This document shows, piece after piece, positions 6,465 through 62,840 of a DNA stretch of 64,000 nucleotides. The stretch covers positions 186,001-250,000 of the forward strand of contig NZ_VIVR01000001.1 of assembly GCF_007828955.1 (NCBI RefSeq). The letters run 5' to 3'. A program made the translations under genes and the position numbers. Within the stretch, counting starts at the first letter, position 1. Each line of letters starts with the position of its first letter. The notes under the pieces are model-generated. The model did no database searches and had not been told where the DNA came from. It saw nothing but the letters and a program-made list of their open reading frames with translations. The DNA comes from Kitasatospora atroaurantiaca. GTDB taxonomy: Bacteria > Actinomycetota > Actinomycetes > Streptomycetales > Streptomycetaceae.

Positions 6465-6553
6465 CGGAGAAGGCAGGATTCGAACCTGCGCGGGCTTGCA
6501 CCCGACCAGAGCCAGAGCCCTGATCCCCGATAAACCACTCCGGGCACCTCTCC
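6465..6553 (-). ncRNA. tRNA-like RNA without an anticodon, copy 1
   Basis: Read on the minus strand, the 89 nt give a 7-bp acceptor stem (GGAGAGG with CTTCTCC, one G-U pair), a D-arm (CCCG, loop GAGTGGTTTAT, CGGG), a hairpin, a long variable arm (GGGTGCAAGCCC) and a standard T-arm (GCAGG TTCGAAT CCTGC). A discriminator G follows. Where the anticodon arm should be there is GATCAGGGC-TCTG-GCTCTGGTC: nine pairs (two of them G-U) closed by a tetraloop, leaving no seven-base anticodon loop. A leader hairpin, CCCGCA (6579-6584) with TGCGGG (6602-6607), has a 17-nt loop. CCA is not followed exactly (GCCCA). The long variable arm and G73 are serine-tRNA traits. Confidence 0.8.
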
Positions 6554-6623: not shown

Positions 6624-6669
6624 ATGACTCTCCCTCATCCCCCTGATCGCGCCCTGACACCGCACTGAC
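6624..6669 (-). promoter_or_regulatory. 11-bp phased GTCAG promoter of tRNA-like copy 1
   Basis: On the minus strand two GTCAG units and one ATCAG unit start exactly 11 bp apart (complements at 6665-6669, 6654-6658 and 6643-6647). The last heptamer, ATCAGGG, is followed after 10 bp by GAGTCAT. The other three copies have TAGTCAT at the same place. This is the most diverged of the four promoters. It ends 70 bases before the tRNA-like fold. Confidence 0.7.
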
Positions 6670-14894: not shown

Positions 14895-15767
14895 GTGACG
14901 GTGCACCCGTTCATCGAGGCGGAGAAGCAGAGCGGCCACAACGTCAAACGGGCGTGTGAGCTGCTGAAGGTCTCCCGTGCCGCCTTCTACGCCCGCCGCA
15001 CCGCCATGCCCGGTCCCCGCGCGGTGCGCGACGCGGAGCTGACCGAGAAGATCACCGAGGTCCACCAGACCTCGCGAGGCAGCTACGGATCCCCGCGCGT
15101 CCATGCCGTGCTCCAGCGCGAGGGCGAGCGGTGCGGCCGCCGCCGGATCGCCCGGTTGATGCGCCGATCCGGCCTGCAGGGCCGCCACCGCCGGCGACGA
15201 CAGCGCACCACGATCCCCGATCCGCATGCCGGCACTCGTCCGGACCTGGTCCTGCGAGACTTCCAGCCCGACCCGGCGGCGGTCGACACGCGTTGGTGCG
15301 GCGACATCACCTACATACCGACCCAGGAGGGCTGGCTCTACCTGGCCACCGTCATCGACATCGCCTCGCGCCGCGTCGTCGGTTGGGCCACCGCAGACCA
15401 CCTGCGGACCGAACTGGTCGCCGATGCGCTTCGGGCTGCCTGCCGGACCCGCCGCCCATCCGGTCCGGTGGTGTTCCATTCGGATCGCGGCTGTCAATAT
15501 ACGAGTCGCGAATTCTCCATCCTGGCAAGGGATTTCGATGTCAGATTGTCGGTCGGCCGCACCGGTCAGTGCTGGGACAATGCGCTCGCCGAGTCGTTCT
15601 TCGCCACGCTGAAGCGGGAGTTGCTCGGCGACCGGCCGTGGCCGAGCCGGGCGGTGGCCCGCACCGCGATCTTCGAGTGGATCGAGAGCTGGTACAACAT
15701 ACGCAGGCTGCACAGCAGCCTCGGCTACCGCAGTCCCGCCGAGTACGAGACCGTTCTCGCGGCCTGA
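14895..15767 (+). CDS. IS3-family OrfB, DDE transposase, separated from its OrfA
   Basis: A 290-residue OrfB starting at GTG 14895 (GGAGACCC upstream). It has an HTH_21 part (SRGSYGSPRVHAVLQRE) and an rve core with DDE residues in WCGDITYIPTQ, FHSDRGCQYTS and NALAESFFATLKRE. The reading frame is intact, but the IS110 insertion has cut it from the orfA message. Without frameshift fusion the element should be inactive unless helped by a related copy. Confidence 0.9.
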   Translation: MTVHPFIEAEKQSGHNVKRACELLKVSRAAFYARRTAMPGPRAVRDAELTEKITEVHQTSRGSYGSPRVHAVLQREGERCGRRRIARLMRRSGLQGRHRRRRQRTTIPDPHAGTRPDLVLRDFQPDPAAVDTRWCGDITYIPTQEGWLYLATVIDIASRRVVGWATADHLRTELVADALRAACRTRRPSGPVVFHSDRGCQYTSREFSILARDFDVRLSVGRTGQCWDNALAESFFATLKRELLGDRPWPSRAVARTAIFEWIESWYNIRRLHSSLGYRSPAEYETVLAA

Positions 15768-16034: not shown

Positions 16035-16123
16035 CGGAGAAGGCAGGATTCGAACCTGCGCGGGCATTCACCCGATCGGGACCGAAGTCCCGGTCCCCGA
16101 TAAACCACTCCGGGCACCTCTCC
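16035..16123 (-). ncRNA. tRNA-like RNA without an anticodon, copy 2
   Basis: It has the same 89-nt architecture as the other copies: 7-bp acceptor, D-arm, 22-nt hairpin, variable arm GGGTGAATGCCC, T-arm and discriminator G. The hairpin is GACCGGGAC-TTCG-GTCCCGATC, closed by the very stable C(UUCG)G loop, with one C-A mismatch. Compared with copy 1, pair 5 changes from A-U to G-C and pair 8 from G-C to A-U, both compensated. The leader hairpin is CGCAC (16139-16143) with GTGCG (16160-16164) and a 16-nt loop. Confidence 0.8.
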
Positions 16124-16198: not shown

Positions 16199-16244
16199 AT
16201 GACTATTCCTCACCGCCCTGACATCGCACTGACGTGGCACTGAC
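16199..16244 (-). promoter_or_regulatory. 11-bp phased GTCAG promoter of tRNA-like copy 2
   Basis: Three GTCAG units on the minus strand (complements at 16240-16244, 16229-16233 and 16218-16222) repeat every 11 bp. GTCAGGG is followed by 10 bp and then TAGTCAT (complement 16199-16205). It lies 76 bases before the tRNA-like fold. Confidence 0.75.
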
Positions 16245-16537: not shown

Positions 16538-17176
16538 GTGAAGGTCGGTCGGATGTTTCTCGCGTTGGTAGCCGGGGCCGGACTGTTGGTCGGCGCCACG
16601 CCCGCGCACGCCGCCGTTCCCGCGGCGCTGGACCAGTGCTCCGCCGAGGACCACCATGGTGACCCACGGCTCGGCCCGGAGCGGCTCCCGATCCTGGGCC
16701 GCGTGGGGCTGGAGCTGATCGGCTACAACCGCACGGGCGGCCAGGACGAGCAGACCTTCCTCTCCCAGTACTACGACAGCCAGGCCGGCTCCTGGCGCTA
16801 TCCCCCGGCCGACGGCTATCTGACCGGCCCCGACGGGCAGCCCGTCAAGCTGAACCAGACGCTGCTACCCGGCCAGGACATCGACCGCTACGGCAGCGAG
16901 TACGGCTCTTTCCTGGCACCCGAGGGCCTGCCCTACGCCAACCGCTCCATCCCGCCGCAGAGCCTGGACAGCACCTCTGCCCCCGCCGGCTGCAACTACC
17001 ACGACTACCAGGTCGTCAAGCCCTTCACCGTCCACGCCGGCCCGATCGCTCCCTGGTTCAACCAACCCGGCCATGGATGGCAGTTCCAACTCGACGCCAC
17101 TCTGGTCCCCGGCGCTCCAGAACGAATCAATGTCGGCTGGCTGGTCACCAACGGCTACCTCAAGCGCCTCGTCTGA
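16538..17176 (+). CDS. Secreted TNT-domain protein (NAD glycohydrolase toxin fold)
   Basis: A 212-residue protein. The GTG at 16538 is preceded by GGAGG. The signal peptide ends with the AHA site near residue 25. The mature part matches the TNT domain of the tuberculosis necrotizing toxin family: ADGYLTGPDGQPV, then LLPGQDIDRYGSEYGSFLAPEG with the conserved 'DRYG...G.F..P' block, and the C-terminal GHGWQFQL strand. TNT hydrolyses NAD. Here the domain is nearly the whole protein and is exported without a carrier domain. No obvious antitoxin (IFT-like) gene is next to it; because the enzyme is secreted, self-protection may not need one. Confidence 0.8.
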   Translation: MKVGRMFLALVAGAGLLVGATPAHAAVPAALDQCSAEDHHGDPRLGPERLPILGRVGLELIGYNRTGGQDEQTFLSQYYDSQAGSWRYPPADGYLTGPDGQPVKLNQTLLPGQDIDRYGSEYGSFLAPEGLPYANRSIPPQSLDSTSAPAGCNYHDYQVVKPFTVHAGPIAPWFNQPGHGWQFQLDATLVPGAPERINVGWLVTNGYLKRLV

Positions 17177-31122: not shown

Positions 31123-31211
31123 CGGAGAAGGCAGGATTCGAACCTGCGCGGGCTTGCACCCGACCAGGGCCGGAGCCCTGGTCCCCGATAAACCACTCCG
31201 GGCACCTCTCC
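31123..31211 (-). ncRNA. tRNA-like RNA without an anticodon, copy 3
   Basis: The cleanest copy. The acceptor stem, D-arm, variable arm (GGGTGCAAGCCC) and T-arm are as in copy 1. The anticodon arm is replaced by GACCAGGGC-TCCG-GCCCTGGTC, nine Watson-Crick pairs with a UCCG tetraloop. The leader hairpin is CAGCACA (31226-31232) with TGTGCTG (31248-31254) and a 15-nt loop. A second pairing, CCGCGAG with CTCGCGG, interleaves with it in this copy and could form a pseudoknot. The fold ends CTTCTCC-G followed by CCG, with no encoded CCA. Confidence 0.82.
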
Positions 31212-31287: not shown

Positions 31288-31333
31288 ATGACTATTCACC
31301 TCCACCCTGACCGGACGCTGACACCCCACTGAC
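31288..31333 (-). promoter_or_regulatory. 11-bp phased GTCAG promoter of tRNA-like copy 3
   Basis: Complements of GTCAG at 31329-31333, 31318-31322 and 31307-31311, exactly 11 bp apart. GTCAGGG is followed by 10 bp and TAGTCAT (complement 31288-31294). It lies 77 bases before the tRNA-like fold. Confidence 0.75.
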
Positions 31334-62620: not shown

Positions 62621-62709
62621 CGGAGAAGGCAGGATTCGAACCTGCGCGGGCTTGCACCCGACCGGAGCCAGAACCCCGGTCCCCGATAAACCACTCCGGG
62701 CACCTCTCC
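62621..62709 (-). ncRNA. tRNA-like RNA without an anticodon, copy 4
   Basis: The same 89-nt fold. The anticodon arm is replaced by GACCGGGGT-TCTG-GCTCCGGTC (nine pairs, two of them G-U). Pair 5 is G-C as in copy 2, against A-U in copies 1 and 3. The variable arm and T-arm equal those of copies 1 and 3. The leader hairpin is the longest of the four: CCTCGCGCAC (62726-62735) with GTGCG-g-CGAGG (62753-62763) and a 17-nt loop. The fold ends CTTCTCC-G followed by CCCA. Confidence 0.82.
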
Positions 62710-62794: not shown

Positions 62795-62840
62795 ATGACT
62801 ATTCCCCAGAGCCCTGACACCGCACTGACCCGGCGCTGAC
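62795..62840 (-). promoter_or_regulatory. 11-bp phased GTCAG promoter of tRNA-like copy 4
   Basis: Complements of GTCAG at 62836-62840, 62825-62829 and 62814-62818, exactly 11 bp apart. GTCAGGG is followed by 10 bp and TAGTCAT (complement 62795-62801). It lies 86 bases before the tRNA-like fold. It is preceded by the end of the ABC permease gene. Confidence 0.75.

What the first reader, a model, noticed from the sequence alone, without database searches (positions are those of the whole stretch)
31123..31211. Four-copy family of tRNA-like RNAs in which a tetraloop hairpin replaces the anticodon arm
Seen directly: four 89-nt minus-strand sequences (6465-6553, 16035-16123, 31123-31211, 62621-62709) share acceptor stem, D-arm, long variable arm, T-arm with TTCGAAT and a discriminator G. 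In place of the anticodon arm each has 9 + 4 + 9 nt forming a hairpin closed by UUCG, UCCG or UCUG. Hairpin pair 5 is A-U, G-C, A-U, G-C in copies 1-4 and pair 8 is G-C, A-U, G-C, G-C, so base changes are compensated. The structure is selected and the decoding loop is absent. Known: seryl-tRNA synthetase reads the variable arm and G73, not the anticodon. Inference: these RNAs may be charged with serine (or bind EF-Tu or a tRNA enzyme) and serve something other than translation, such as amino-acid donation, a decoy or a regulatory RNA. They may be listed by tRNA finders as undetermined or pseudo-tRNAs.
Basis: partly seen in the sequence, partly recalled or inferred. Interest (0 to 1): 0.95.

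Follow-up and report, generated by a model that had tools for sequence, protein, structure and literature searches.

The report
Anticodon-less serine tRNA for antibiotic synthesis
The window holds four of this bacterium's ten genes for a serine-tRNA look-alike whose anticodon arm is replaced by a plain hairpin; one of the ten, and many relatives in other species, sit beside genes like those for azoxy antibiotics, so they likely hand serine to an antibiotic-making enzyme instead of the ribosome, which would answer how such enzymes get their charged tRNA.

Summary
The genome (inferred Kitasatospora) has ten copies: nine in the chromosome arms (four in this window) and one in a cluster resembling those for valanimycin-type azoxy compounds, divergent from a VlmA-like (PF09924) gene, with an extra seryl-tRNA synthetase 11 kb away. 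In 33 of 33 named-genome azoxy loci with a copy in reach, it lies 193-640 nt from vlmA and divergent; one plasmid locus departs from this. In 249 Streptomycetaceae genomes the RNA and the azoxy marker VlmB occur together in 28, RNA only in 3, VlmB only in 4, neither in 214. Of 13 exact SARP-type triple repeats in the genome, 9 precede tRNA-like genes, 3 lie between other cluster genes, 1 elsewhere. One of 113 folded sequences has a 7-nt loop in the anticodon-arm place. Best reading: a dedicated seryl-donor tRNA, probably unable to decode, run by the azoxy regulon. Transcription, charging and use by VlmA are inferred, not shown. Nine literature searches of an open-licence library showed no description.

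The parts
6465..6553 (-). tRNA-like RNA, copy 1 (loop UCUG)
16035..16123 (-). tRNA-like RNA, copy 2 (loop UUCG; one C.A mismatch at hairpin pair 3)
31123..31211 (-). tRNA-like RNA, copy 3 (loop UCCG), the finding
62621..62709 (-). tRNA-like RNA, copy 4 (loop UCUG)
6643..6669 (-). SARP-type triple repeat upstream of copy 1 (one mismatch)
   Evidence: (genome 192643-192669)
16218..16244 (-). SARP-type triple repeat GTCAG-N6-GTCAG-N6-GTCAG upstream of copy 2
   Evidence: genome 202218-202244
31307..31333 (-). SARP-type triple repeat upstream of copy 3
   Evidence: (genome 217307-217333)
31291..31296 (-). -10-like AATAGT, 8 nt after the last GTCAGNN heptamer of copy 3 (predicted)
   Evidence: sequence; position profile of 83 copies
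62814..62840 (-). SARP-type triple repeat upstream of copy 4
   Evidence: genome 248814-248840

Best explanation
These are genes for a tRNA-Ser-like RNA with no anticodon arm that is predicted to be charged with serine and to hand it to a VlmA-type transferase for azoxy-compound synthesis, likely bypassing the ribosome. Inferred route: a SARP activator of the azoxy cluster switches on the azoxy operons and the tRNA-like genes, including those scattered in the chromosome arms, through GTCAG direct repeats; the transcript is trimmed and given CCA like a tRNA; SerRS (the cluster's own VlmL-type enzyme where present, otherwise the housekeeping one) charges it by variable arm, acceptor stem and G73; the VlmA-like enzyme moves the seryl group to an alkylhydroxylamine. 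Without a decoding loop the charged RNA should not be consumed by translation, so it can be made in bulk (many copies, tandem arrays). Shown: structure in sequence, conservation, location, co-occurrence, shared promoter motif. Inferred: expression, processing, charging, transfer, regulation.
For: (1) Location: in 33 of 33 named-genome azoxy loci with a copy in reach, vlmA is 193-640 nt away and divergent (one hit per locus measured); the same on plasmid NZ_CP108789.1 in a VlmB cluster and in the own genome. (2) Co-occurrence: 28/3/4/214 in 249 Streptomycetaceae, Fisher p = 2e-29; 9/3/1/57 in 70 congeners, p = 3e-8 (samples overlap); 75 of 80 genomes of VlmB loci carry the RNA (33 locally; 42 of the other 47 elsewhere). 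(3) The four VlmB-only genomes have VlmB at 47-50%, the lowest identities in the list; in the 18 kb fetched for each no SerRS is found, two have only a 42-44% VlmA and two none. (4) Shared operator: 12 of 13 exact motif sites in the genome precede tRNA-like genes or lie between azoxy-cluster genes; in four further positive genomes 33 of 48 merged sites precede tRNA-likes and 4 lie within 20 kb of VlmB. (5) Cluster SerRS lie across a long supported branch from presumed housekeeping SerRS; the own-genome one aligns to solved SerRS over residues 8-419, so the N-terminal arm appears kept. (6) The VlmA-like profile matches alanyl- and lysyl-tRNA-dependent transferases in the PDB. (7) Four ordinary tRNA-Ser genes are present. 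(8) Serine identity is independent of the anticodon (PMC9976931, passages).
Against: No transcript, charging or product evidence. Five of 80 VlmB genomes have no detected copy; four of these loci hold a VlmA and two a SerRS (L201 both). 17 of 50 loci with near-complete VlmA lack a local copy. On plasmid NZ_CP108984.1 the RNA is about 1.5 kb from vlmA and not divergent. Of nine plasmid stretches with a copy, only two hold a VlmA match. Three of 31 RNA-positive Streptomycetaceae lack VlmB: two single divergent copies and G205 (three copies; genome 76% complete; a SARP but no VlmA, VlmB or SerRS in 19 kb). Divergent VlmB alone does not predict absence: G151, G154, G165, G281 and G319 have VlmB at 50-53% and the RNA. 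11 of 48 motif sites in other genomes are unexplained; only 8 of 16 copies in G080 and 6 of 17 in G024 have the exact triple motif. Accessory SerRS also occur without the RNA. The product of this genome's cluster is unknown, and no Streptomyces viridifaciens Vlm protein was compared directly.
Confidence: 0.8

Rival explanations
1. A regulatory or decoy RNA: uncharged or charged, it titrates SerRS, EF-Tu or a tRNA enzyme, or reports serine status to the azoxy cluster, rather than donating serine.
For: SARP-type promoters and dispersed copies fit a trans-acting RNA; tRNAOther of Bacillus cereus was proposed to be a tRNA-like element in a regulatory RNA (PMC3399842, passages).
Against: Acceptor stem and T-arm are each identical in 50 of 52 model hits while the hairpin varies, which puts selection on the end that would carry the amino acid (the model itself favours that). 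The gene is next to the aa-tRNA-using enzyme in 33 of 33 named-genome loci and divergent from it, so not a cis leader there.
Confidence: 0.1
2. A mobile or SINE-like dispersed repeat or pseudo-tRNA family derived from tRNA-Ser, with no function in the azoxy pathway.
For: Up to 17 copies listed in one genome (G024), in arms and on plasmids; orientation is biased within a genome (9 of 9 outward here, 13 of 15 in G024, 8 of 9 in G087, 1 of 10 in G116).
Against: Covariation in the hairpin; 83 of 99 first-in-array copies have at least a double GTCAG repeat within 300 nt upstream, 8 of 99 downstream; present with VlmB in 28 of 31 RNA-positive family genomes.
Confidence: 0.05
3. A decoding tRNA of unusual shape (tRNA-Sec-like, suppressor, or one matured by removal of part of the hairpin).
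For: Best sub-threshold Rfam match is tRNA-Sec; ARAGORN offers anticodons.
Against: The offered anticodons differ between copies; hairpin length varies and loops are 3-5 nt in 109 of 113 folds; four ordinary tRNA-Ser genes are present.
Confidence: 0.03

Closest known systems
Specialised tRNA-Gly isoacceptor of Staphylococcus aureus (peptidoglycan bridges)
   Same: A tRNA set aside for an aa-tRNA transferase rather than translation (PMC4810233, passages).
   Different: That tRNA keeps an anticodon (recalled); here the whole arm is replaced, the amino acid is predicted to be serine, the client is a biosynthetic cluster, and copies share a SARP-type motif.
Valanimycin-type azoxy pathway (VlmA, VlmL, VlmB, VlmH, VlmI)
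   Same: VlmA-like PF09924 enzyme, extra SerRS, VlmB-like and VlmH-like enzymes, SARP.
   Different: Published accounts seen here (passages) speak of seryl-tRNA or tRNA-Ser, suggest the cellular pool for azodyrecin, and call the diversion mechanism unknown; none mentions a cluster-encoded tRNA in those passages.
tmRNA (SsrA)
   Same: A tRNA-like end without an anticodon, aminoacylated (abstract starts of PMC3985003 and PMC2481249).
   Different: tmRNA has an mRNA part and works on the ribosome; here the whole gene is ~90 nt with only a hairpin in that place.
tRNA-Sec and allo-tRNA
   Same: Serine-type long variable arm; closest Rfam model is tRNA-Sec; enzymes that do not bind the anticodon arm (PMC7609411, passages).
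   Different: They have anticodons; here 7-bp acceptor and 5-bp T-stem and no anticodon loop.
tRNAOther of Bacillus cereus
   Same: tRNA-like RNA outside translation (PMC3399842, passages).
   Different: Has a Trp anticodon, lies at a genomic island, only poorly aminoacylated in vitro, made as part of a larger RNA.

Membership tests
Canonical tRNA-Ser | Cloverleaf with 7-bp acceptor, T-arm TTCGAAT, long variable arm, G73 | tested here: met
Canonical tRNA-Ser | 5-bp anticodon stem with 7-nt loop holding a Ser anticodon | tested here: not met
   1 of 113 folded sequences has a 7-nt loop, on an 8-bp stem
Canonical tRNA-Ser | Charged with serine by SerRS | not testable with these tools
   needs biochemistry
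tRNA-Sec (RF01852) | Score over Rfam gathering cut-off | tested here: not met
   27.5-33.3 bits against 47 on the 5 loci given
tRNA (RF00005) | Score over Rfam gathering cut-off | tested here: not met
   none of the 70 own-genome matches lies at a tRNA-like copy
Aliphatic azoxy (valanimycin-type) cluster, own-genome locus around 5.07 Mb | VlmA-like PF09924, VlmH-like, VlmB-like and flavin reductase genes together | tested here: met
   VlmB name from NCBI annotation of relatives 58-77% identical; not compared with S. viridifaciens proteins
Aliphatic azoxy (valanimycin-type) cluster, own-genome locus around 5.07 Mb | Makes an azoxy compound | not testable with these tools
   no product data
SARP regulon | GTCAGSS-type heptamers with 4-bp spacers, 8 bp upstream of -10 (PMC7040171, passages) | tested here: met
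   (83 of 99 first-in-array copies with at least two repeats); two SARP genes in the cluster region
SARP regulon | SARP binding and activation at these sites | not testable with these tools
   needs EMSA or RNA-seq
Dedicated non-proteinogenic tRNA (S. aureus tRNA-Gly kind) | Donor to an aa-tRNA transferase, not used in translation | tested here: inconclusive
   gene next to the transferase gene in 33 of 33 named-genome loci; activity untested
Dedicated non-proteinogenic tRNA (S. aureus tRNA-Gly kind) | Retains an anticodon loop (recalled) | tested here: not met

The most novel reading that the evidence does not exclude
Actinobacteria evolved a biosynthesis-only tRNA: an anticodon-free seryl donor with its own synthetase, its own transferase and its own SARP regulon of dispersed genes, giving antibiotic synthesis a private aminoacyl-tRNA supply physically unable to enter the genetic code.
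Probability: 0.7. Interest if true: 0.95.

Novelty: categorically new. Interest (0 to 1): 0.92.

Why it matters
[quoted passage not shown] A cluster-linked tRNA without anticodon would bear on both and make the question testable with a gene deletion. It would also be a natural charged-tRNA scaffold free of decoding, a marker for mining seryl-type azoxy clusters, and a caution that a tRNA finder gives such genes false anticodons.

Tried and rejected
Rejected: local peculiarity of this window (ten genomic copies, wide family); phage origin (no match in the phage collection); cis-leader of vlmA (33 of 33 divergent); a tRNA of another type in the four VlmB-only loci (ARAGORN finds no tRNA gene in L269-L272; Rfam, run on three of these four, finds no tRNA); a weak 15-bit model match in L201 lies in vlmA coding sequence. 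Replication-fork orientation as a general rule: outward in three same-genus genomes, inward in S. griseofuscus G116, of which I counted the 10 copies visible's list out of 15 matches.

Limits: the regular expressions select on acceptor and T-arm, so invariance there is circular; the 50 of 52 figure comes from hits of a model built on such sequences, includes near-identical tandem copies, and one of the two exceptions is a 27.7-bit ordinary tRNA; in alignment A3, 12 of 36 copies have one G-U in the acceptor. One of the 114 rows is a regex artefact, one 77-nt row folds only its variable arm, and that output was cut. Model R1 may miss divergent forms, and searches over 40 genomes use stricter filters. 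The 57-bit cut in the genus was set by eye: of hits at 43-51 bits the ten fetched (L133-L142) are ordinary tRNAs (nine named tRNA-Ser, one tRNA-Gly); others at that level were not looked at; the two hits at 39-41 bits that I ran through ARAGORN are tRNA-Tyr and tRNA-Cys. Searches are taken as the same draw of 249 because their handles agree; non-matching genomes were not all listed. Gene calls outside annotated records are my own simple caller.

Not in print: searches, 109 of open-licence PMC papers only, mostly seen as listings; passages of eleven papers were read. Subscription papers and preprints are not held, and the 2008 VlmA paper could not be read.

Full report
What is there. The four 89-nt copies lie at the stated places and fold as a tRNA with a long variable arm and a 9-bp, 4-nt hairpin where the anticodon arm should be; copy 2 has one C.A mismatch in that hairpin. 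The genome (7.87 Mb, one contig) has ten copies: four in this window, five near the right end, one at 5.07 Mb. The four normal tRNA-Ser genes (GCU, GGA, CGA, UGA) are present; the tRNA-like is closest to tRNA-Ser(UGA), 66 identities. The genes flanking the window copies (DUF347, epimerase, rve integrase core, TNT domain, glycosyltransferase-like, no family, FAD-binding, weak ABC2 membrane) are not azoxy genes (8 scanned).

Context of the tenth copy. It lies at L045:8740-8833 between a PF09924 gene (L045:7547-8524, minus) and an aldehyde dehydrogenase gene, in a cluster with an acyl-CoA-dehydrogenase-like (VlmH-like) gene, class III aminotransferase, flavin reductase, ferritin-like VlmB-like gene, SARP and fatty acid desaturase, with a SerRS 11 kb and a second SARP about 13 kb on. 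PMC9379638 (passages) mined aliphatic azoxy clusters by VlmA (PF09924) and VlmH and found VlmB/O/R highly conserved and SerRS in some groups. PMC12945691 (passages) describes VlmA as converting isobutylhydroxylamine to its O-seryl ester with Ser-tRNA. A profile of three VlmA-like proteins matches solved alanyl- and lysyl-tRNA-dependent phosphatidylglycerol synthases.

Distribution. A covariance model from 36 copies found copies of 57 bits or more in 12 of 70 same-genus genomes; the ten hits fetched at 43-51 bits are ordinary tRNAs. VlmB-like proteins occur in 10 of the 70; overlap 9, Fisher p = 3e-8. The nine multi-copy genomes all have VlmB; the three without VlmB have one divergent copy each. 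In 249 family genomes (which include the same genus) the table is 28/3/4/214, p = 2e-29. A scan of named genomes with VlmB kept 80 of 179 relatives: 33 loci have the RNA within the roughly 10 kb held on either side, and of the other 47 genomes 42 carry it elsewhere, 75 of 80 in all, including Actinokineospora, Micromonospora, Parafrankia and Microbispora. In these 33 loci vlmA is 193-640 nt away and divergent. 17 of 50 loci with near-complete VlmA have no local copy; in G033 and G080 the copies found lie away from the VlmB locus, so the RNA would have to act in trans. Copies also occur on 11 Streptomyces plasmid records; of nine such stretches fetched, each confirmed by the model, two hold a VlmA match: NZ_CP108789.1, divergent as usual, and NZ_CP108984.1, where vlmA is about 1.5 kb away and not divergent; a third, NZ_CP108116.1, holds SerRS, SARP, PrpD-like and diacylglycerol-kinase-like genes. 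S. griseofuscus pSGRIFU1 carries a copy while an azoxy locus lies on that strain's chromosome.

Structure under selection. Among 113 folded distinct sequences the first hairpin loop after the D-stem is 4 nt in 79, 5 in 17, 3 in 13, 8 in 2, 6 in 1 and 7 in 1. On 36 copies 31 cells are changed on both sides of a pair against 10.9 in shuffles, and 7 of 9 hairpin pairs show such a change; a picked set of 23 hairpins gives 14 against 5.3. Acceptor and T-arm are each identical in 50 of 52 model hits. So the amino-acid end looks fixed and the decoding end is only required to be a hairpin, with the caveats on selection given under Tried and rejected.

Regulation. Each own-genome copy is preceded by GTCAG-type direct repeats at 11-nt period (one repeat ATCAG in copy 1) and a -10-like hexamer 8 nt after the last heptamer. 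PMC7040171 (passages) gives GTCAGSS as the consensus of the SARP PapR2, heptamers with 4-bp spacers, in several SARPs 8 bp upstream of -10, and notes the valanimycin SARP VlmI. In the own genome the exact triple repeat occurs 13 times: 9 before tRNA-like genes (8 dispersed, 1 in the cluster), 3 between other genes of the cluster region, 1 at the end of an unrelated gene; the ninth dispersed copy has one mismatch; the reversed pattern, with up to one mismatch, gives 1. In four more positive genomes 33 of 48 merged sites precede tRNA-like genes, 4 lie within 20 kb of VlmB and 11 elsewhere; four VlmB-negative genomes gave 4, 1, 0 and 0 raw sites; the reversed pattern gave none in the eight. Over 99 first-in-array copies, 83 have at least the double repeat within 300 nt upstream and 8 downstream.

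Synthetase. Cluster SerRS proteins lie across a long supported branch from presumed housekeeping ones, but six accessory SerRS not linked to azoxy clusters lie on the same side, and a few long rows may be misplaced. Accessory SerRS also occur in genomes without the RNA. The own-genome cluster SerRS aligns to solved bacterial SerRS over residues 8-419.

Mechanism. [quoted passage not shown] Every step after the DNA is inference. The open question it addresses is stated in PMC4052509 (passages).

Novelty. No Rfam family matches the window at gathering level; reviews of aa-tRNA-dependent biosynthesis, N-N bond enzymes and non-canonical tRNAs do not mention it in the passages seen; nine literature searches showed no description in their listings, within an open-licence library. 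I rate it categorically new because the known dedicated tRNA of S. aureus keeps its anticodon (recalled) and the known anticodon-less tRNA-like RNA, tmRNA, works on the ribosome.

Noticed in passing
G000 arms; G024, G087, G116: Dispersed copies are co-oriented within a genome: 9 of 9 point to the nearer telomere here, 13 of 15 in G024 (includes terminal-repeat duplicates), 8 of 9 in G087, but 1 of 10 counted in S. griseofuscus G116. Cause unknown.
   Followed up: partly
L045:7382-7531; L046:10040-10186; L081:6633-6782; L083:9388-9537: A 48-49-aa protein with a shared APDD motif is encoded next to the vlmA-like gene in four azoxy clusters; the one tested has no Pfam or NCBIfam match.
   Followed up: partly
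G022:C1:3074297-3074823; G080:C4:7004449-7006921; G141:C1:6958275-6958615: Tandem arrays of the tRNA-like gene (five copies at 109-nt spacing in G022); 13 of 28 later array members have no double GTCAG repeat within 300 nt upstream.
   Followed up: partly
L045, L047, L048, L052 leaders: Cluster-located copies share a leader of the type GTGAACGGC..CGGG..CCGG between promoter and RNA, unlike the arm copies of the own genome.
   Followed up: no
window 16538-17176 +: The gene next to copy 2 encodes a TNT-domain protein (PF14021).
   Followed up: no
window 14895-15767 +: An integrase-core (rve, HTH_21) transposase-like gene lies on the other side of copy 2.
   Followed up: no
L042:4189-6843: An alanine--tRNA ligase gene lies near tRNA-like copies on plasmid NZ_CP109120.1, with no VlmA match in the 16 kb fetched.
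   Followed up: partly
L270:14505-14573, L271:4175-4243: Rfam ASpks antisense RNA model matches over its gathering score in two VlmB-only loci.
   Followed up: no
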